A DNA stretch of 64,000 nucleotides, from assembly GCA_029717555.1 (NCBI GenBank), contig JAMDHS010000009.1, positions 291,654 to 355,653 of the forward strand, written 5' to 3'. This document shows, one piece after another, positions 28,669-64,000 of this stretch (position 1 is the first letter of the stretch; each line of letters begins with the position of its first letter). This DNA is from Peribolospora baueri. Taxonomy: Eukaryota > Basidiomycota > Peribolosporomycetes > Peribolosporales > Peribolosporaceae. A model generated the notes under the pieces. The model ran no database searches. It saw only the letters and a program-made list of their open reading frames with translations, and was not told the origin of the DNA. The translations under genes were made by a program, and so were the position numbers.

Positions 28669-28761
28669 GCCGTCGTGGTTTAGGGGTCATGACGTAATCT
28701 TCACACGCCAGCGAGCTGGTGGAGTGCGGTTAAAACCCCGGTTCGATTCCGGGCGACGGCA
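28669..28761 (+). tRNA. tRNA-Val(CAC) with a 21-base intron
   Basis: Cloverleaf read by eye. Acceptor stem GCCGTCG pairs with CGACGGC (28754-28760), with discriminator A at 28761. The D arm is GTTTAGGGGTCATGAC. The anticodon stem TAATC (28695-28699) pairs with GGTTA (28728-28732). The T arm is CCCGG-TTCGATT-CCGGG. The loop T-T-C-A-C-A is followed by 21 extra bases (28706-28726) before position 38, which is where nuclear tRNA introns sit; the intron itself contains a CCAGC/GCTGG hairpin. Removing it leaves anticodon CAC (Val, GTG codons). A T-run just downstream serves as the Pol III terminator. Confidence 0.85.
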
Positions 28762-44310: not shown

Positions 44311-47300
44311 TTAGGCACCGGAGCTGGAGATATCAATGGCGAGCGGGTCCTGTCGCGAGTGAACAATCAGCCCAAGGCATTGCATCGTGTCGCACGAAAT
44401 CAAATCAAGGTAAAGGGAGAGAAAATGGCTCGGTCAGCGCCGTCCGCTTCTCGCGCACAAACGAAGCGGACAATCGGCGGTCTGTCGGTCGTCAAGCGGA
44501 CGGCCGAGTGACGGACAAACGTACCTTGCCGGACTTGATCTCGGTTTTGGTGGGCATCTTTCCGATGCGGAGTAGCTCGGAACATTGCGATACGAGCGGG
44601 TCGCGACCCATGCTGATTGGAAAGAAGATTTGTGACAGAGGTGGACGGTAAATGAAGTGAAGAGGCAAGAAGGAAGGCACGCAGGCCGGTGCTAGCCACC
44701 GTGCCCTGAGCCCAGAGCCCAGCTACGCTGATCTCAACCATCGACGTAAATCTGCGTGCCCACTTACCTTGAAACGGCGACGACCGTTTCTCCGTGGAAA
44801 TAATACGCCGCGAACTTGAGCTCGGCGGCGTTGCCGTCGATAAACACGTCGTCGAACTTGGGGCCGTCCGAGCCGCAGTAGCGGAGTTGAGCTCCCAGGG
44901 CCGACCAGAAGATTGGAACCTGAGTAGAGAAGAAAAAAGAGTTGGAATCACGGTGGGGGGGCAATAAAAAAGAAGGCCAAAACGTTGGTCAAGTTGCGCC
45001 CGAAACCGCCCCATTAACATGACCCATGAACGGGCCCCACGAACGGGCGCGAACATGCACACACCTTTTGGAAAGGTGCTGGCTTTCCAGCAACCGTGTG
45101 ACCGACTGAACGACCGTGGTTACCGGCGACATTCCAGTGCTCGATGCGGACTGGCATGCCGGTGCGCTTAGATGGGTAGGTAGCAATGTCACCTTCGTGA
45201 GGTCAGGAGACCAGTGCGTGTTTGGAGATGGATAGAGGAATCCAATGGGGAGCATCAGTGAGCGGGTCCGTGGAAAAGCAAGAGGGAGAGCGTGAGTTAG
45301 GAGGAGAAACGAGTACCGGAGAAGGACCGAAGGCGGAAGAACGAAGCTCACCAAGAGCAAACACCCCGTCCTTTCCAGGAACCCTCAATAGTTCATCCAC
45401 CTTGATACTCCCATCCTTCTCCAGCTCCAAGCCGCTGCCCTTCAAAAAGTCTGTCGCGGGTGCGACACCGACGCCCAGGACGACCGCGTCCGCGGGGAGA
45501 GCGGTTCCGTCCGTCAGGTGGACGGCATTGACGGTGTTAGATTCAGTGGTGGAGAAGGAGCCGACAGAGAGGTCTGTATGGAAGCTGATGCCGTTCTTTT
45601 GCATTGCCTGAAGGGTGGCAAATGCAAAGACGACGTGAGCGCGATCAATTGTCATCTTCTAGCCGGTGCACTCAGGACCTGACCCGAGCCCGGAACCCAC
45701 CTTCATGATCGCCTCGCCAACCTGGGGGCCGAGGATCCCCTCAAACGGCACCTTCTCTATGCCTACAATGTGCACCTCGGCACGTTTGAACGTGGCGTTG
45801 GCTAGCTCCATGCCGATGAAGGAGGTACCCACGATGACGAGTTTCTTCTTTGTGGTGGAAGAGCCATCTTGGTTACCGATGGCTACATAGTGCGAAGGAA
45901 GCAGAGCAAATTAATGTGAGATGGGTTGTGCACAGAAGAAAGGAGCGAAGGAGCACGCACCTTGGTTGATGGCCTTGGCGTCCAGAACGGTCCGAAGGGT
46001 AAACACGTTATTAGCGTCGGCTCCTTTGACAGGCAGACGCTGCGCAGTATGAAACCGAGCGTAAAGCGAACGGCATTGGTAAGACGAGCACACCAGTCGG
46101 ACGTAGACTACCCTAGCCAATGCGCGCTGAGCTCAACCATGCGAGGGACAACCGAAGAAGCTATGCGAATAACCGAAGACGCACCCTGGGCTTGCCTCCC
46201 GTGGCGAGAACCAGCGTGTCGTAATGCACCGATTGACCGCCGAAATTTACCTTCTTGTTGGCAATGTCGACCGAGTCGACATGCTGTGTTGACGAAGGTA
46301 ACGGGAAGATGTAGGGGCAGACGGAAAGAGGAACGAAAAGACTACGTTAAGGTTGAATTGCAGATAAAAGCAACGGGAAGCCCCTGTCCGCCCCTTGTTG
46401 GCCAACGACCCGGAGCAGTCGAGCTGGTTCCCACTTTGTGACCGTGGCCCCCCTTCCTGCCAATGATAGTAAACACTCACAACGCCCGAATGAAAGTCCA
46501 CGCCCAACGTGTCCCGGAGGAAATCCTCGGAGCGCCAGGCGAGCTTGGAGGGATCGTCGATGAGGGCCTTGGAGAGCTTTGTGCGGTCGATGGGGGGGTA
46601 AGGTTCGGCAGAAAGGACGATGATGGGGAAAGCGTAGCCGTTCTATTTGCATGTCCGTGCGGAGTCGATAAACAAGGGGAGAGACGAGACAAGAAAAGGA
46701 CATCAGCATGAAAACGAGCTTGAACGTTGGCTAAGCCTCGGCGTAGACGCATGCGCATGTGTACTAGAGCACACACTCAAAACACCGCGCAGACCAACGA
46801 CACGCAATGTTCGCAAGCTCACCTCCCTAAGCGTCTCGATCAGCTGGATCGTCCCCGAGCCTCCGCCGACTACAACGGTCCCCTTCACAACGTCCTTCTG
46901 CGTCTTCTGAACCTCGGCAGCGGAAGGAGAGGGGTGGCGGAAAGAAGCACACTTCTGCGGGTCGCCCTCGACAAAGACATCCGTACCCTGGAGAGATGTC
47001 TTAAAGACATGGAGGCTCGAGAGGCCCGGTGCGTCCTCGATGTCGCCAGTGGTGAGGGAAAATCTGGGGGAGCGAGGAAATGCACGACGCACGGTTCATT
47101 CAGTCTTTACCATCGTTCAACGGATCGCCTTCAAAGGCGCAACCAACCGACTTACTTGGCCCCGTGCCAAGGACAAGTGACGCATGCCTCGTTGGTCAAC
47201 ACGCCGTTACTGAGCGGGGCTCCATAGTGGCTGCACTTGTTGGACGTCGCATACCACTTGTCTCCTACACGGGCAAGGAGGATCTTGTTACGCTCCTCGT

Positions 47301-51881: not shown

Positions 51882-52257
51882 GTCGAGCAGATGGGAGTTG
51901 ACGAACGGTGGATGGAGGAGTGATCGAGATCGGCGGCCGGGCCTTGGTTCGATCACTGCGGAGCGAGCTGCGGTCGTTCCTCGTCACGTGGATTCCCGTG
52001 TCGCTATAGCTCGCCTTCTGTGAAGTCCTGTATCATCCACCGACTCGTGCATAGTTTTTACGACTTTTTGGTGCTGCTCCCACGTACAGTTTTTAAAAGG
52101 GGCCCTGCGCTCAACAATCTGGATCATGGAAGAGTTCGAAACTAAGAATTGACTCTCCATGTGGACGCGACGGGCCCTCCGTTGGTCCCGCGGCGTTCGA
52201 TATTCCTCCTCCGCATTTCCACCACAACGATTAGAGAACGAAATTTCTCGGGAATTG
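51882..52257. other. intergenic region between tandem minus-strand genes
   Basis: About 375 bases, containing the RMD1 promoter and the gephyrin 3' UTR; nothing further seen. Confidence 0.5.
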
Positions 52258-55231
52258 TCAAAGCAAACTCGGAACCAATGGTCCAAGCAGCATGGCTTCG
52301 CACACTTCCCCCGCATCCAGCCTCGTCTTTGCACCGGGACCGGGCTGCAAGCCGGGCAAGCACACGAGACCGTTGGCCGTCGCCATGCTCGCCATCCGAG
52401 AGGAGCGTTGACCGCCTGTCGAATGCGCTTGAAGAAAAACGGGTGAGGACGGATCGCTGTCCGTGATGGGCGAGGCCGAGGCGACAGGCGAGATAATCAC
52501 TCGATGAAATTCGGGACGCGGATCCAAGCGCATGGGATCGGCGAGCTGGACGAGTAAACGAAGAGTTCGTCCGTCGGAGAGCGAACAAAAAGGCAGAAGG
52601 GTCAATGATTCCGAAGTCCGCGCAATCACACAACTCAAAAGCAAAAGGAATCTGACTCACTCGAACCTTCACCCTGGGCACCTCCCAGGGCCTGCCGATA
52701 ATGACTCCGTCCACGGTCACTCCGTAGCCGGATAGTTTGCGCAAGGCGGGTAGGATAAAAACGTAGAAGCACACGAGGGCAGAAGCCGGGTTGCCTGGCA
52801 AGGCGAACACCAACTTTTTAGCTTGTACGGCGTGCCCAAATGCCGTATCTCCTTCTAAGGAGGGGACAGTAGCAGAAGTGGTGGCGAACGAAGTGGGCTT
52901 CCCGGGTTTCATGGCCACACGGCCGAAGTGGATTGTGGCGTCCAGTTCACGCTCAAGGAGCGGCTTGAGCACGTCAGACTCGCCCATCGAGGTGCCGCCT
53001 GTGGTTATAACCAGGTCCGCTGAAGAGAGGCCGCGACGGAGGGCAGCGAGGGTGGATGGGATGCTGTCAACGAAGAGACGAAATGGGGTACGGTAGTGAG
53101 CTGATCTTTCGGCCGCCGAGCCACAGGGCGCTCTAGCGTCCCGGTTGAATCATAACGCGGCGACGTGACTTACTTGTCTCCCACGATGCCCAGATCGACG
53201 ACCTTGTATCCTTGTGACTCAATCGCCATTTTGAGCGCAGGCCGGTTGGTATCCGTCACCGTCTTCAATCCCTCTCCACCTGATATGGTCCTCTCTTCCT
53301 CTGCTTCTCCTCCGCTTCCGTCGCTGTCATGTAGATCCTTGATCTCCTCGCCAGTGCTAAGGACGGCCACCGTCGGCTTCCTAAACACCTTCACAGCTCG
53401 ACGGCCCACAAATGCTAGAGTGCCTACTTCGCCGCCTAGTGCGCTGATCTGTTGGCCGGCACGTAGAACCACATCCCCTGCGCGAACGTCTGAGCCAGGA
53501 GGTCGTACGTTCTCCGCGACTGAGACTGAGACGAGGAGCTCTACCTCGTCTTCTTCCTCTATGTCCTGGCCTTGTACGACTCCTACAGTCGGTGTCGGAT
53601 TGGCAGGTGAACCGGTGGCAGAGCCGCTGGCGGACGAAATGGAACGAGAGGAAACAAGTCTGGTATCCTCCACCATAACCACGGCGTCCGCACCTGGAGG
53701 CAGAGCCTGACCGGTGTTGACGCGGTATATGTGTCCGGCCGGGAGAGAGATCGTGGACCATTGCGTCGACGGCAGGTTGCGCGAGGTCAACACTTTGAAC
53801 GTCCCCGCTCCATCCGAGGCTTTCCCCGTTATACGTTAAGATCGCAAGATCGAAAGAAGAAAGGGAGCGCGCATGTTTAGCAAAAGAATACCTGGGCCAC
53901 TTTCCACCTGTTATCGCTCGCTCCATCCACAAACTATCATTTCTCGTCTCCTTACCGCGAACAGCGTACCCGTCCACGTTGGTCGTCCTCGCCCGGGGAA
54001 TGTCCCAGTTGGCAGCGACGTCTTCCGCCAGGACATATCCGAGGAGCTTCTCGTCAACGCGGAGCGTATGCACGTCACTCTCCGAAGCGTTCCTAGGATT
54101 ACAAATCGGCGAGGGAGTGTGTTCGTCGATAAGGGAGAGGGCTTTTGAAAGCGAAATAATGGGATAGGGCGACGAGCGCTGGCGTGCTCCGACTGAATAA
54201 AACAAGGACAGACGTAACGAGAGTTTGACTCTGAGCATCTGCATACACAATCACGCGGCAAACTCATAGATCTCAATGACTCACCAGGTTTGGATGGATC
54301 ATTGGAGACAAACTGCCGCGTCCTCGGCACCGGCGCGCGGTGATCATTGTGGCCGTGGTGGTGCTGGTGGTGTGGGTCATGGGAAGTGCCGTGACCGCGG
54401 CCGTGGGCGTGCGAGTGATGATGAAGGAGATGAGGATGCTCTTGCCTACTTCTACCCTCCCTGCTTGCGCTCGTCTTTTGGCCATCACCCTCTCGCTCTT
54501 GACGGTCCATCTCCGCATGAGTTGAAGCGCCGTTACCTCCAGTGACGAGCTCGAGGGCGTGAGACATCACGCTCACCGTTTGCAGTCCCGGTCCGCCGAA
54601 GAGGGCCTCTGCACACTCTCGGATGGCCTTGGGAGAACCGGGTAGAGAGACGATGAGCGAGGTGCCCCGGATGCCGGAGATAAGTCGGGAGAGGGCAGCA
54701 AGAGGTGTGCGGGCCAGGGACGAAGAAAGGAGGTGGTGGGTGAGGCCCGGGGTGGGGCGTTGGATCAACGAGCTGATGGCCTGAGGAACGCGGAACACTG
54801 ATCAGCCATACCTCTCTACAGATGGAATGGTAATGAGATGACCCACTTCTGGGGTGACGTCTCTGACGCCAAAGCCAGTGCCCCCGGTGGATAGGACGAG
54901 GGCAAGTTTCAGCTCGTCGCACCACCGCTTGACGACGGTGATGATCTTATCGGCATCATCGGGGACGATATCAGATACGACAATGCGATAGGACGCATCA
55001 TGGCTCTTCTCGACGAGCTCGCGTAGGAGCGGCCCTGATGCATCTGTGGAAGGCGAGCGGGAGGAGGTGTCGCTGACTGGAGGCGGGGCGGATAAAGGAT
55101 GGAACGTGGAAAGGAAGAAACAGTGCTGCTTAGTGCCGGCAGGTAGACCCGCTACACCTCCTCCTACCACCACTACTACTCCTCTGTGTAATCCCTTCTG
55201 GCTCACCGGTAAGCACTCCGACGGCGTACAT
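52258..55231 (-). CDS. gephyrin/CNX1-type molybdopterin molybdotransferase (MogA-MoeA fusion)
   Basis: Seven exons (55231-55207, 55076-54847, 54780-54285, 54192-53956, 53819-53174, 53063-52661, 52545-52258) give 774 residues. The protein adenylates molybdopterin and inserts molybdate, the last steps of Mo-cofactor synthesis. The N-terminal MogA/G domain has MYAVGVLTVSDTSSRS, LVLSTGGTGFGVRDVTPE and SLIVSLPGSPKAIRECAEAL. The MoeA/E domain has TTNVDGYAVRASD, VNTGQALPPGADAVVMVEDT, VITTGGTSMGESDVL, GRVAMKPGKP and FALPGNPASALVC. A His-rich linker (about residues 215-250, with runs such as LLHHHSHAHGRGHG and HHQHHHGHNDH) joins them. In fungi the cofactor serves xanthine dehydrogenase, nitrate reductase and sulfite oxidase. 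The gene follows the allantoicase fusion on the same strand, 450 bases away. Confidence 0.93.
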
Positions 55232-58977: not shown

Positions 58978-61900
58978 ATGACTTCCCCGAACCTCTCCCG
59001 CGCCCCATTCGACTGGTCCAAGGTCTTCCCTTCGGCAGCCGATTCGACTTTCGCTCGCTTCGCCAGCCGTAGGTCCGTTGTCTACGGTACCAAGGGCGTC
59101 GTTGCTTGCTCTCAGCCCCTGGCCGCTCAGGCTGGCCTTGAAGTGTTGGGAAAGGGAGGAAATGCCGGTGAGCGCTTGTGTTGCGCTAGTGTCAGTGCGG
59201 AGCGCATGGGCATGGAGAAGGACGACTGACCACTCACATTATCTGATCTTTGTCTTTCTCCTTTGCTCGTCACTCGCCCTGCAGCTGATGCAGCCGTGGC
59301 TGTGGCCGCAGCCTTGAACGTGACCGAGCCGTCCTGCACTGGCATCGGTGGGGACATGTTCTGTCTTTTCTACGACGCCTCAACCCGTCGCGTACGTGCG
59401 CTCAACGGCTCTGGAAGGGCTCCTCGCACGCTCTCCCTTGCAAAGGCTAGAGATCTGGGCATCAATGGCAGGGAAATTCCGCTCACTAACATCAATAGCG
59501 TCACCGTCCCTGGAGCCGCTGCGGGATGGTGTGATACGGTCGAGTGGTTGGGGAGTGGCAAGGTCGGCATGCAGGAAGTGCTGGCACCAGCGATTCGTTT
59601 GGCTGAGGAAGGGTGATTGTCAGAGTTCCTTGTTGTCTCTGCATTTATTTCTTGAACGACCTGGACAAGTTATGCTCAGTTCTTACTTGTTCACCTCTTC
59701 CCTTTGGCTTCCTCTATGAAGGTATCCTTGCCATGAGGTAAATTCCTTCGCAGTGAGTACAACTTTTGTCTTTGTGTAGAGGAAACTTTTTATGGGGCAT
59801 CCAGTTCTAACGTCCTCTACCTCATACTTTTTCCCCGTCCTCCAGTGGCAGCGCAGCGAAAACCTCATCCGCGAGGCCTCTCCCGATGGAACGGCCATGC
59901 TCCCAGTCAATGGCAGGGCGCCAAGGCCGGGGGAGCTTGTTCGTCTTCCGGACCTGGCCAAGACTTTTCGCGAGCTGGTTGCCAAGGGAAAGAAAGGATT
60001 TTATGAGGGCCGAGTTGCGGAGGCCATTGTTGAACGTGAGTCAGGAGGAATCATCTGGGATACTTTGGCGAAGTGCTTGTTGGTTTTTTTTAGGACGCAC
60101 GTCGTATTGCCATCCTGACGTTTTCTTGTCGACAATCTTAAGTTATCAAATCCAAAGGTGGAGTTATGGAGCTTTCGGATCTCGCTGAACACACTACCGA
60201 GGAGGTCGAACCCATTAGCTACATCTACGGACACGTACCTGACAAGGAGCCTGGTGTTACCGTTTACGAGTGTCCTCCGAATGTAAGTCGTTCTTCGCTT
60301 TGGTAGTATCAGTTTGGCATTGTAGTTGTGTCCTTTCGCACTTCTTGTCTGACACTCCCAGTCCAATTGTTTTCTACTTCCATGCTCACCTCCGGCTCGG
60401 TTGAAACTGCATTGCCGTTATCGCGTTTCTCGACTCGAACTAATCCTGTAATCACATGACAGGGGCAAGGTCTCACTGCGCTCGTTGCGCTCGGCATCCT
60501 GGACGAGCTCCAGAATGAAGGACGCATTCCCGACCTCTCCACCATCGACCACAACTCGACTGCGTACTTGCACGCCCTCATTGAGACTCTTCGGTGAGCC
60601 GAGTTGAAACGGCTGTTTTGTGGTTGCTCAGCTCTGTTCAGAAAATTCCTCCCTAACCTGCCCACCCTCGGACGGCGCTTGTGTCTTCTTGTCTTCGCCC
60701 TTCTATTGCAGTCTCGCCTTCGCAGACACACGCTATTATGTTGCAGACCCCAATGTGGTGCACGTTCCGGTCAAAGAGCTGCTCTCGAAGGAGTACCTCA
60801 AGAAGAGGGCTGCTTTGTTCGATCCCAAGAAGGCCACTGCGGATGTCAAGAAGGTGCGGACACGGTCTCTTCCCCTTTGCAACTTTTTAGTGTGGAAGAG
60901 GGGGTTGTAAGACAGGATCGCTCACCTCTCGTTATTTTTTGACGATCGCCCCGCTCTCGGTCGCTTTCAATAATGTTTGTGGTCACCTTGCACAGGGCTC
61001 GCCTGTCAATACGTCTAACACCGTCTACTTCTCTGTCACCGACAAGTACGGAAATGCTTGCTCTTTCATCAACTCCAATTGTGAGTGCACGTTGCCTGCT
61101 GTCGTATCGGAGGCGACAGTCCCAAATCCAACCCGGTGCACGTCGTGGATCTTCCTTATATTCTAACTTCTTCTTGTTCTCCCTTTTTACCCGTTGAGAC
61201 GCCGGTTTTGGCACGGCTGCGATCCCTCGCTCTTGCGGCTTTACGCTTCAGAACCGAGGGTCTTGCTTCACGCTTGAAGAGGGCCATCCCAACTGCCTTG
61301 AGGGTGGCAAGAGGCCATATCATACCATCATACCCGCCATGGTTACGAAGGGCGATGAGCTCTATCTGAGTTATGGCGTCATGGGAGGTGGGTTTCTGGT
61401 CAAGGTTCTGCATAGCTGGCTGGATGCGCTGACTCCTTCTCTCGCACGCACCCCGATTCGTGTGTGTCATTTGCGCCGACATCTTCTCACCTCCCATCAT
61501 TGCAGGCTTCATGCAACCCCAAGGGCACGTTCAAGTCCTCATCAATCTCCTTCACAAGGGCTGTACTGTTCAAGAGGCCTTGGATGCACCGAGATTCTGC
61601 ATTAGTGCCGGGTTAGTGACGCATCTTACGGCCCGTCTTCTTGTTTCTCTTGCCCTGTCCGCCTTTGTTGTGTTGTTTTCCCCTCTGCGCGCTGCGCTTG
61701 GCTCTGACCTACGGATGCGAAGCCTGTTTGCCAAGTCGCCGGGGTTTTTTGGCCTCCTTGCCGAGGCTTACCCCCCTGGCACCATTATCCTTATCTCGTC
61801 ATCCAACTGGGCCCTAACTAATCTGCAGTTTTATCTCTCCGGCGCCGGTTTGATATACAGCCTTCCAGATGCAAACGATAAGAGCACAAGTACTGCTGGA

Positions 61901-62122
61901 GATATCAACAGCGAACTGATGCTGGAAGAGGGCATCGCGCCTGATGTCGTCGAGGAGCTAGCCAAGATGGGACACCAAGTCAAGCTTGTCAAGGGACATG
62001 GAAGGGGTGTCTTCGGGAGGGGTCAGATGATCATGAACATTGCTGATAAGGCTACCGGAAAAAGGGTGTGGGCGGCCGGAAGCGATCAGAGGATTGACGG
62101 GCACGCTGTAGCGGAGATTTGA
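58978..62122 (+). CDS. gamma-glutamyltransferase-family Ntn hydrolase
   Basis: Eleven exons (58978-59167, 59285-59612, 59722-59752, 59846-60035, 60143-60282, 60463-60593, 60712-60853, 60996-61080, 61199-61387, 61506-61611, 61861-62122) give 597 residues. Hallmarks are [66 protein letters not shown], and the autocleavage threonine region [18 protein letters not shown] (N-T-x-x-F-like, T starts the small subunit). [15 protein letters not shown] is also conserved. There is no signal peptide or membrane anchor, so it is probably the cytosolic branch close to bacterial YwrD and oxamate amidohydrolase rather than the secreted glutathione enzyme. It is the last host gene before the telomere. The final intron (61612-61860) is 249 bases, the longest in the gene. 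Confidence 0.9.
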
Positions 62123-62332: not shown

Positions 62333-62601
62333 TGTCATGAACGCCGCCTCCGATCCGAGATGACACGACTGCCTTGCGCCGATGCATGTATATATAGGGG
62401 GCCCGACAGGGCCTCCACCTCTCCTTTCCCCAAGCTAGAGATACTTTTGTCACCACTCAGGTTCTTGAGTCTTGTCCTGCCTCTCTGCTTCCTTGCTGCC
62501 TTTCCTCCTCCTGTCTCGGTTCGGTGTCGACTCCTGGTGCAACCCCTTCTGTTCCTCCTGCCTTGCCACCCGACGACCTGAGTAGGGAGCAATCCCTGAC
62601 A
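62333..62601 (+). repeat. 5' LTR of the truncated element
   Basis: About 269 bases bounded by TGTCA and TGACA, a perfect 5-base inverted repeat with the TG...CA ends of LTRs. A TATATATAGGGG box near 62391 marks the element's promoter. With only one copy present, the right boundary rests on the inverted repeat and on the leader plus gag that follow. Confidence 0.7.
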
Positions 62602-62644
62602 TTATCTCTAGCTTCTTAGTACCCCGAGTCGACTCTCCAGCGCC
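62602..62644 (+). other. leader between LTR and gag
   Basis: 43 bases starting TTATCTCTAGCTTC. The primer-binding site should begin here, but I could not match it to a tRNA 3' end by eye. Confidence 0.3.
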
Positions 62645-63315
62645 ATGGACAACCAAGAAGACATCATCAACCAACTCAAGCGGGAAATCAGCGAGTTACG
62701 GGCCGCCCAGCAAGACATGCCCAGAGACTTCAGTCCCAGCATACCCAAGCCACCCGCCAAGAGCCTCGGCGACCTCATGGGCCCTCCCCCCGAGTTCGAT
62801 GGCAAGGACCGTGACTCCTGCCGCACTTTCCTCTCCCAAGTCAACCTCTTTATGGCCGCCAACCCCGAGCTCTTCAACAACGACCATGCCAAAGTGATGT
62901 ACACCATTTCACGCCTCCGTGGTCGAGCCTACCAATGGGTCGAGCCCCATCTCCTTAGAAGCGACAACCCCACCCTTTCCAGCTATCAAACCTTCACTGA
63001 GGAGCTGATCAAGAATCTCGGCGATCCGAACCGCGAGTACACTGCTATCCGGCAGTTAAAGGCACTCCGACAGACAGGCTCAGTCTCCAGCTATGCCACC
63101 CGGTTCCTCCAGCTCGCCTCCTTCATTGACTGAAATGATAGCGCCCTCCGGTACCAATTCTACGACAATCTTAAGCCTGAAACCCAGGACTCTCTGGCCT
63201 TGTCCGCGGAAAAGCCAAAGGACCTCCAAGAGCTCATTGACGTGGCAACCAGGCTCGACAACAGGAATCACGACCTCGACCAGAGAAGGAACCCAAAGGT
63301 TAGGGTTAGGTTTTA
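62645..63315 (+). pseudogene. retrotransposon gag, nonsense-mutated and truncated
   Basis: The reading frame starts MDNQEDIINQLKREISELR, a coiled-coil start usual in fungal Ty3 gag, and contains the retrotransposon gag core: PPEFDGKDRDSCRTFLSQVN, YTISRLRGRAYQWVEPHLL, FTEELIKNLGDPNREYTA and SSYATRFLQLASFID. A TGA stop at 63131-63133 interrupts it, but the same frame continues NDSALRYQFYDNLKPETQD and DLQELIDVATRLDNR. The continuing homology implies a single-base change (TGG Trp to TGA). After QRRNPK the frame runs into telomeric repeats, encoding V-R-V-R-F and a stop. The zinc knuckle and everything 3' are absent. Confidence 0.85.
63298..63310 (+). repeat. interstitial telomeric tract
   Basis: GGTTAGGGTTAGG, just over two TTAGGG units in the same orientation as the terminal array. 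It lies exactly where gag homology ends and where the next subtelomeric segment begins. Confidence 0.85.
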
Positions 63316-63905
63316 AGAGTGTTATTCTACTGTTCCCACTTAAGAGTTGCGTGTGTTAACTACAGGACGAGAGGGGATTAAGCGAGAAGAGTTGGGCGAG
63401 AGAGCTAGAAGGAGTGGGTGAGAGAGGGGGAGGGAGTGGGTCGAGAGAGCGAGATGGACGGGGCGAGAGAGAGTGAGGGAGAGTGGAGCGATGGTTATGT
63501 TGGCAGGGTCTGGGTATGTGGGAGTGATGTGAAGGGAGATATTCCGTCTGGCACGGGCGAAATCCTTGGAAGGTCTGGCAGGCCCAGTTGTGCGCCAATC
63601 ATGTTGAGTAGGTGAAGGCCTATCGGTCGATATTTGGTGCGGTTGAGGAGGAAATCGAGCATTGTGTATCCCTTGCGGCCGTTTATTGCTCGATTGAAAT
63701 CTCGTTGCAGTTGCGCGTTGTGGCGTTGACTGTGATCATTCGTCGTTTGTATGATCATGTCCTGGAAGCATGTGTCGACATGGGTTCGGCGGAATGTTGC
63801 GCCGCAGCAACATGTTTTACCCAAGCCGAAGGTCCCCTTGCGCCATCGGAGTGCCAGCTGACGTTGCTGTCGATCCTTGATGAGCAAGCACCTGTCGGAG
63901 TCCTC
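63311..63905 (-). mobile_element. possible 5'-truncated non-LTR element between telomeric tracts
   Basis: About 595 bases flanked on both sides by TTAGGG sequence. Read on the minus strand it starts directly at the telomere, carries the end of an open frame (63905-63495), and then about 180 bases of purine/pyrimidine-skewed non-coding sequence before the interstitial tract. That is how a 5'-truncated LINE inserted into telomeric DNA would look, with its 3' end toward the chromosome interior. A unique subtelomeric fragment remains possible. Confidence 0.4.
63495..63905 (-). pseudogene. C-terminal fragment of a protein with CCHC-like finger, LINE ORF-like
   Basis: The frame is open from the first base next to the telomere (P-E-D-S-D-R-C-L-L-I-K) to the stop at 63495, with no start of its own. 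It contains LALRWRKGTFGLGKTCCCG then ATFRRTHVDTC, a C-x-C-x(8)-H-x3-C arrangement of the kind seen after the reverse transcriptase domain of fungal non-LTR elements, followed by RAINGRKGYTMLDFLLNR. No catalytic reverse transcriptase motif is inside the fragment, so the assignment is by resemblance only. Confidence 0.4.
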
Positions 63906-64000
63906 GGGTTAGGGTTAGGGTTAGGGTTAGGGTTAGGGTTAGGGTTAGGGTTAGGGTTAGGGTTAGGGTTAGGGTTAGGGTTAGGGTTAGGGTTAGGGTT
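63906..64000 (+). repeat. telomere, (TTAGGG)n
   Basis: Ninety-five bases of perfect TTAGGG repeats, about 16 units, running to the end of the window with the G-rich strand toward the right. This is a chromosome end, not an internal tract, because nothing follows. Confidence 0.95.

What the first reader, a model, noticed from the sequence alone, without database searches (positions are those of the whole stretch)
62333..64000. Layered chromosome end: broken Ty3 element, two telomeric units, LINE-like fragment, telomere
Gag homology stops exactly at GGTTAGGGTTAGG; a 595-base segment follows, then the true telomere. A simple reading is that the chromosome broke inside a retrotransposon, was healed by TTAGGG addition, and a second, non-LTR element then inserted into the new telomeric repeats, with repeats regrowing outside it. 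Telomere-targeted non-LTR elements are known in a few fungi (for example MoTeR in Magnaporthe). Here the fragment is oriented with its 3' end inward and its open frame begins flush with the terminal repeat.
Basis: partly seen in the sequence, partly recalled or inferred. Interest (0 to 1): 0.75.

Follow-up and report, generated by a model that had tools for sequence, protein, structure and literature searches.

The report
Retroelement-patched, healed fungal chromosome end
This chromosome end seems to have snapped inside one jumping gene, been healed with telomere repeats, and then gained a shortened piece of a second, probably telomere-loving jumping gene before its present telomere; such ends are known in a few fungi.

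Summary
The layering is real. Reading outward: a gamma-glutamyltranspeptidase gene; a Ty3-type element with its proximal LTR, a self-priming-type primer site and about 650 bases of gag; 13 telomeric bases (63298-63310); a 595-base segment (63311-63905); then 15.8 perfect TTAGGG units to the window edge. The 13-base tract is not chance.

That the segment is a LINE is suggestive, not proven. Its open frame is no longer than chance gives (536 of 2000 shuffles), codon usage is neutral, and Pfam, NCBIfam, PHROGs and PDB give nothing significant. For it speaks a zinc motif followed by RHN, the signature opening the endonuclease region of MoTeR/FoTeR/CRE elements; but the spacing is at least 4 residues too long and the catalytic residues are absent. 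The layout (5' side outward, truncated, two telomeric units at the 3' end) is that described for stable MoTeR-bearing ends.

Best reading: a terminal deletion healed by telomere addition, then a 5'-truncated MoTeR/Cnl1-like element. No genome is held for this window, so copy number could not be tested. Known kind; modest interest.

The parts
58978..62122 (+). Host gene with several introns, gamma-glutamyltranspeptidase-like; the last gene before the chromosome end (outer bounds approximate, read by eye)
   Evidence: Pfam G_glu_transpept 6.7e-9 on 61433-62119; frame and stop
62333..62601 (+). LTR of a Ty3-type retrotransposon (269 bases, TGTCATGA...CCCTGACA); TATATA at 62389. Limits chosen by eye
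62603..62614 (+). Primer-binding site complementary over 12 bases to 62432-62443 inside the LTR (self-priming type; the type is recalled)
   Evidence: 4 of 20,000 letter shuffles of the 34 bases after the LTR give an exact match this long
62645..63297 (+). gag reading frame with an in-frame stop at 63131-63133; runs up to the telomeric tract, after which the rest of the element is missing
   Evidence: Pfam on 62645-63130; frames; codon usage favours this frame
63298..63310 (+). Interstitial telomeric tract GGTTAGGGTTAGG, same orientation as the terminal telomere
63311..63494 (-). Proposed 3' untranslated part of the second element (reads inward); G-rich on the + strand, with 22/45-base imperfect tandem repeats at 63381-63481; inner end TTTT on + (AAAA on -) beside the tract
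63495..63905 (-). Open frame reading inward (P0001 without its first residue, which is telomeric), cut at its 5' side by the telomere; proposed C-terminal part of a MoTeR/Cnl1-like reverse transcriptase-endonuclease protein
   Evidence: no significant family match
63717..63812 (-). C-X1-C-X7-H-X3-C-X14-RHN motif (P0001 residues 33-64)
   Evidence: compared with the published motif
63906..64000 (+). Terminal telomere, 15.8 perfect TTAGGG units, reaching the edge of the window

Best explanation
This is a terminally deleted fungal chromosome end. The chromosome broke inside the gag gene of a Ty3-type, self-priming LTR retrotransposon lying just beyond a gamma-glutamyltranspeptidase gene, and the distal rest of the element and of the arm was lost. 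Telomerase healed the break with TTAGGG. A telomere-targeting non-LTR retrotransposon of MoTeR/Cnl1 type then entered those repeats by target-primed reverse transcription, its 3' end laid down first against the inner two repeats and its 5' side facing out; it was truncated, either by incomplete reverse transcription or by later erosion, and the present telomere was built on the truncation. Shown: the order and coordinates of the layers, the Ty3 identity, the telomeric nature of both tracts. Inferred: the break-and-heal history, the identity of the second element, the insertion mechanism.
For: Ty3 element anchored by LTR, primer site and gag domains, with telomeric DNA where the rest of the element should follow. 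Internal tract not chance and in telomere orientation. The segment's frame carries C-X1-C-X7-H-X3-C followed by RHN; the relaxed pattern occurs once in six frames of the window and in 3 of 300,000 shuffles of the protein. One FoTeR group reads ARHNAVN; here QRHNAQL. From RHN to an acidic residue there are 20 residues, as in MoTeR1/FoTeR, though here it is D and not E. Layout as reported for MoTeR: 5' ends always nearest the chromosome end, truncated elements capped by canonical telomere, an interstitial tract of no more than two repeats at stable ends; 19 of 24 new telomeres after rDNA-end truncations there grew from seeds of 1-4 bases. A basidiomycete relative of MoTeR, CNL1, has its full-length copies at chromosome ends with telomeric repeats outside (case 7 assemblies).
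Against: No significant family, PDB or collection match for the segment. The strict published motif is not met: 0 hits in the window with X9-10; here X14. R/KPD is absent (RPI stands near the fitting place), the E is D, and the last D/E lies 15 residues on where 12-14 is published. Open-frame length is what chance gives and codon usage is neutral, with one other frame marginally better. No reverse transcriptase region is left to classify. Copy number unknown. The motif spacing was relaxed after seeing the sequence. FoTeR copies have at least 3 repeats at the 3' end, here 2.2. CNL1 also inserts outside telomeres (13 insertions in FRR1), so a relative need not be telomere-bound.
Confidence: 0.57

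Rival explanations
1. The segment is not a non-LTR retrotransposon but another piece of terminal DNA (subtelomeric helicase fragment, Penelope-like element, or plain subtelomeric sequence) copied or joined onto the short healed telomere from another chromosome end, through the telomeric repeats, and then capped in its turn.
For: No significant database support for a LINE; chance-length frame; neutral codon usage. Break-induced replication from other ends is discussed for MoTeR ends, and the authors could not rule it out for MoTeR acquisitions. Penelope-like elements and subtelomeric RecQ-type helicase genes are reported at Agaricus chromosome ends.
Against: The CCHC-RHN motif is rare by chance, and the 3'-inward, 5'-outward polarity fits a telomeric retroelement.
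Confidence: 0.27
2. One-step healing: the second element's reverse transcriptase used the broken Ty3 DNA end as its primer and capped it, the two telomeric units being carried at the RNA's 3' end or added briefly by telomerase, as HeT-A caps broken Drosophila ends.
For: The tract is only 13 bases, so no long intermediate telomere need have existed. Drosophila telomeric elements insert at broken ends, and endonuclease-independent L1 insertion is reported at mammalian telomeres (a passage and reference titles). MoTeR relics keep at least a partial repeat at the 3' end.
Against: No intact copy to show that the RNA ends in telomeric repeats; telomerase-type healing followed by insertion or erosion explains the same tract.
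Confidence: 0.1
3. Assembly or library chimera at one or both junctions.
For: Only one assembly is seen; read support is not available here.
Against: A 13-base tract is far too short to mislead an overlap assembler (inference), and the layering has a known biological counterpart.
Confidence: 0.06

Closest known systems
MoTeR1/MoTeR2 of Magnaporthe (Pyricularia) oryzae, truncated copies at stable telomeres (PMC7367193, passages and section 27)
   Same: Embedded in TTAGGG; 5' side toward the chromosome end; 5'-truncated copies capped by canonical telomere; no more than two interstitial repeats at stable ends; CCHC plus RHD/N motif region
   Different: No sequence of it was at hand to compare; motif spacing X14 and not X9; no RAD or R/KPD and no E at the expected places; the inner neighbour here is a broken Ty3 element; no TTTGGG tract, as expected if truncated
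FoTeR of Fusarium oxysporum (PMC12857005, abstract and sections 16, 18, 19)
   Same: 3' end followed by telomeric repeats; truncated copies keep repeats on the untruncated side; RHNA in one subgroup, as here
   Different: 3.0-8.0 repeats at the 3' end against 2.2 here; the abstract places tandem repeats upstream, here they lie in the 3' part; no sequence compared
CNL1 of Cryptococcus neoformans (PMC12810828, passages)
   Same: MoTeR-related; full-length copies at chromosome ends with telomeric repeats outside
   Different: Different telomere unit (TAACCCCC); also recovered as insertions in the FRR1 gene; no sequence compared
Ty3/gypsy elements of the self-priming Tf1/sushi type (type recalled)
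   Same: LTR, adjoining primer site complementary to the LTR interior, gag domains
   Different: Only the proximal 965 bases remain, a minor part of a typical element (typical length recalled), and gag holds a stop codon

Membership tests
CRE-clade telomeric non-LTR retrotransposon (MoTeR/FoTeR/Cnl1) | Reverse transcriptase domain of the CRE clade | not testable with these tools
   The region is cut away at 63905; no genome is held
CRE-clade telomeric non-LTR retrotransposon (MoTeR/FoTeR/Cnl1) | CCHC motif, C-X1-3-C-X7-8-H-X3-4-C | tested here: met
   C-X1-C-X7-H-X3-C at 63768-63812 minus (definition). CCHC alone is not rare: 3 hits in six frames of the window, 537 of 300,000 shuffles
CRE-clade telomeric non-LTR retrotransposon (MoTeR/FoTeR/Cnl1) | RHD/N motif 9-10 residues after the CCHC | tested here: not met
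   RHN is present but 14 residues after; strict pattern 0 hits in the window, relaxed pattern 1
CRE-clade telomeric non-LTR retrotransposon (MoTeR/FoTeR/Cnl1) | Catalytic E and R/KPD (or RAD) | tested here: not met
   D at the E position (spacing 20), RPI near the R/KPD position (spacing 8), read from P0001; could be decay of a dead copy
CRE-clade telomeric non-LTR retrotransposon (MoTeR/FoTeR/Cnl1) | Telomeric repeats at both ends, 5' side outward | tested here: met
   orientation rule. Holds only if frame P0001 gives the element's sense
CRE-clade telomeric non-LTR retrotransposon (MoTeR/FoTeR/Cnl1) | Repeated at several chromosome ends | not testable with these tools
   No genome held; no relative confirmed in viral contigs and genome contigs, which are viral and prokaryotic collections
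Ty3/gypsy LTR retrotransposon | LTR, primer site, Ty3-type gag | tested here: met
Ty3/gypsy LTR retrotransposon | pol genes and second LTR | tested here: not met
   Telomeric DNA stands at 63298 where they should follow; no repeat of 30 bases or more with the LTR elsewhere in the window
Penelope-like telomeric element | Penelope-type reverse transcriptase | not testable with these tools
   No reverse transcriptase region was found in the segment's long frame (Pfam); any such region would lie beyond the truncation

The most novel reading that the evidence does not exclude
A retroelement directly capped a broken chromosome: a telomere-adapted, endonuclease-deficient non-LTR lineage in this fungus primes on free DNA ends, repairing terminal deletions alongside telomerase. 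The loss of the catalytic E and R/KPD residues in an otherwise recognisable endonuclease region would then be a lineage trait, not decay.
Probability: 0.06. Interest if true: 0.75.

Novelty: new member of a known kind. Interest (0 to 1): 0.33.

Why it matters
If the second element is confirmed, it adds another fungal lineage, with a TTAGGG telomere, to the short list with telomere-embedded retrotransposons (MoTeR, FoTeR, CNL1). It would also give one compact locus where terminal deletion, telomere healing and retroelement entry can be read in order. The 13-base tract is a place to test whether such elements need a pre-existing telomere or can cap a break.

Tried and rejected
Family and structure searches with the segment's frame: Pfam (best E 0.14, DUF3017, rejected), PDB sequences (best E 0.74, rejected), NCBIfam (0), PHROGs (0). 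Relatives by collection: the frame in viral contigs and genome contigs (0 confirmed of 5 and of 87 pattern matches), the first gag piece in viral contigs (0 of 19). These are viral and prokaryotic collections, so this says little. The 19-base 3' junction pattern: 0 in viral contigs; 1 in genome contigs, in a bacterial assembly where GCGCC follows the pattern and not a further telomeric unit: taken as chance. LTR-gag DNA against plasmids: none. Second gag piece against PDB sequences: best E 0.89.

Fold prediction of the single sequence: mean pLDDT 47, too poor, so no fold search was run. Open-frame length as evidence of coding: rejected (536 of 2000). Codon usage as evidence: neutral for this frame, -0.019 per codon against -0.016 to -0.070 in the other five; gag gives +0.151 and the host exon +0.132 in their own frames, though their first minus frames also score +0.095 and +0.069 (trained on five host stretches only). 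Rfam at gathering scores: one tRNA elsewhere in the window. Idea of a second gamma-glutamyltranspeptidase gene near 44 kb: not supported (30-base repeat at 80%; E 0.043 over 36 residues; no Pfam hit up to 0.001).

Papers. PMC12857005: abstract and sections 16, 18, 19. PMC7367193: section 27 and found passages. PMC12810828, PMC3636483, PMC10088271, PMC7473861, PMC4700185: found passages only. PMC3374306 (the original MoTeR paper): not held, not seen. The rest only as search listings. I did not search for this very locus in print and do not claim that it is unpublished.

Full report
What is there. The last 1.7 kb of the window form four layers. The terminal array 63906-64000 is 15.8 perfect copies of the TTAGGG unit and reaches the window's edge. 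Inside it lies a 595-base segment, 63311-63905, without a telomeric hexamer. Inside that is a 13-base tract, GGTTAGGGTTAGG, 63298-63310, in telomere orientation; the 11-mer TTAGGGTTAGG occurs nowhere else in the window outside the terminal array, and none of 100 dinucleotide shuffles produced one. Innermost is a Ty3-type element.

The Ty3 element. Residues from 62645-63130 match DUF4939 (3.6e-13), Retrotrans_gag (2.2e-11) and Ty3_capsid (1.8e-8). A 269-base stretch, 62333-62601, begins TGTCATGA and ends CCCTGACA, with TATATA at 62389; I chose its limits by eye. Just after it, 62603-62614 is complementary over 12 bases to 62432-62443 inside it; 4 of 20,000 letter shuffles of the 34 bases after the LTR reach that. 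That is the arrangement of self-priming elements of Tf1/sushi type (recalled, not from a call). So the proximal LTR is present and the element reads outward. The gag frame has a stop at 63131-63133 and then stays open to the telomeric tract. Pfam homology runs to the stop; the 55 codons after it have no significant hit, so the claim that homology ends exactly at the repeat is a statement about the frame, not a measured homology. The repeat search (30 bases or more) found no second copy of the LTR in the window. The element lies about 0.2 kb beyond a gamma-glutamyltranspeptidase gene (Pfam 6.7e-9), so a coding gene ends within 2 kb of the telomere. This fits a terminal deletion.

The segment. 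Its minus-strand frame (P0001) opens at the terminal telomere and reads inward for 137 codons, the first of them telomeric. Length is no evidence: 536 of 2000 dinucleotide shuffles of the segment hold a frame as long. Codon usage is neutral, -0.019 per codon against -0.016 to -0.070 for the five other frames, whereas gag gives +0.151 and a host exon +0.132 in their own frames. Pfam, PDB, NCBIfam and PHROGs give nothing significant. The structure model is too poor to use (mean pLDDT 47).

The motif. P0001 holds C33-C35-H43-C47 and R62-H63-N64. The endonuclease signature given for SLACS/CRE elements is C-X1-3-C-X7-8-H-X3-4-C-X9-10-RHD/N, then E, R/KPD, D/E; MoTeR1 and FoTeR have RHD with X20 before E, and one FoTeR group reads ARHNAVN (section read). 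Here the CCHC fits, RHN fits (QRHNAQL), but lies 14 residues on, not 9-10. Twenty residues after RHN stands D, not E; eight on stands RPI, not R/KPD; fifteen on stands D, where 12-14 is published. With the strict spacing the window has 0 hits in six frames; with X7-18 it has 1, this one; the CCHC alone has 3. Of 300,000 shuffles of the residues, 1 met the strict pattern, 3 the relaxed one and 537 the CCHC alone. The relaxed spacing was chosen after seeing the sequence, so these numbers flatter it. I take the motif as a pointer to this endonuclease region, probably in decayed form; membership in the CRE clade is not established, because two tested features (spacing, catalytic residues) are not met and the reverse transcriptase is missing.

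What it works like. MoTeR elements in Magnaporthe always have their 5' ends nearest the chromosome end; truncated copies are capped by canonical telomere; stable ends carry a single intact or truncated element with no more than two interstitial repeats; 19 of 24 new telomeres after rDNA-end truncations began on seeds of 1-4 bases (passages and section). FoTeR copies have 3.0-8.0 repeats at the 3' end, and truncated copies keep the repeats on the other side. In the basidiomycete Cryptococcus, full-length CNL1 copies of the assemblies studied lie at chromosome ends with telomeric repeats outside, though CNL1 was also caught inserting into the FRR1 gene 13 times. The present end has the same layout, with 2.2 units at the inner, 3' side. 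The proposed history is: break in gag, healing, entry of a telomeric non-LTR element by target-primed reverse transcription, truncation, regrowth. Only the layers are shown; the history is inferred.

Alternatives. The segment may be other terminal DNA moved by break-induced replication, which the MoTeR authors could not rule out for their own cases, or come from a Penelope-like element or subtelomeric helicase, both reported at Agaricus ends. The element may have capped the break itself, as HeT-A does in Drosophila (passage and reference titles). A chimera is possible, but the 13-base tract is too short to mislead an assembler (inference).

Limits. No genome is held for this window. Its species is unknown to me; intron-rich genes and TTAGGG suggest a fungus, probably a basidiomycete, which is judgement and not a call. 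The collections searched are viral, prokaryotic and plasmid. So the decisive test, the copy number and flanks of the segment at other chromosome ends, remains undone.

Verdict. A real, layered, probably healed chromosome end of a kind already described in a few fungi, with a plausible but unproven new telomeric element fragment.

Noticed in passing
window 62333-62614: The Ty3 element's primer site is complementary to its own LTR interior (self-priming type, recalled), which would put the transcript start near 62432.
   Followed up: yes
window 63381-63481: Imperfect 22/45-base purine-rich tandem repeats within the segment; one G-quadruplex-type match at 63416 on the + strand and none on the - strand of the segment.
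   Followed up: partly
window 44323-44352 and 61895-61924: 30-base direct repeat at 80% identity, one copy in the gamma-glutamyltranspeptidase end; no convincing protein relation.
   Followed up: yes
window 52145-53835: Neighbouring minus-strand stretches matching MoCF_biosynth and MoeA_N, probably one molybdenum-cofactor synthesis gene.
   Followed up: no
window 28669-28761: A tRNA gene, the only Rfam match in the window at gathering scores.
   Followed up: no
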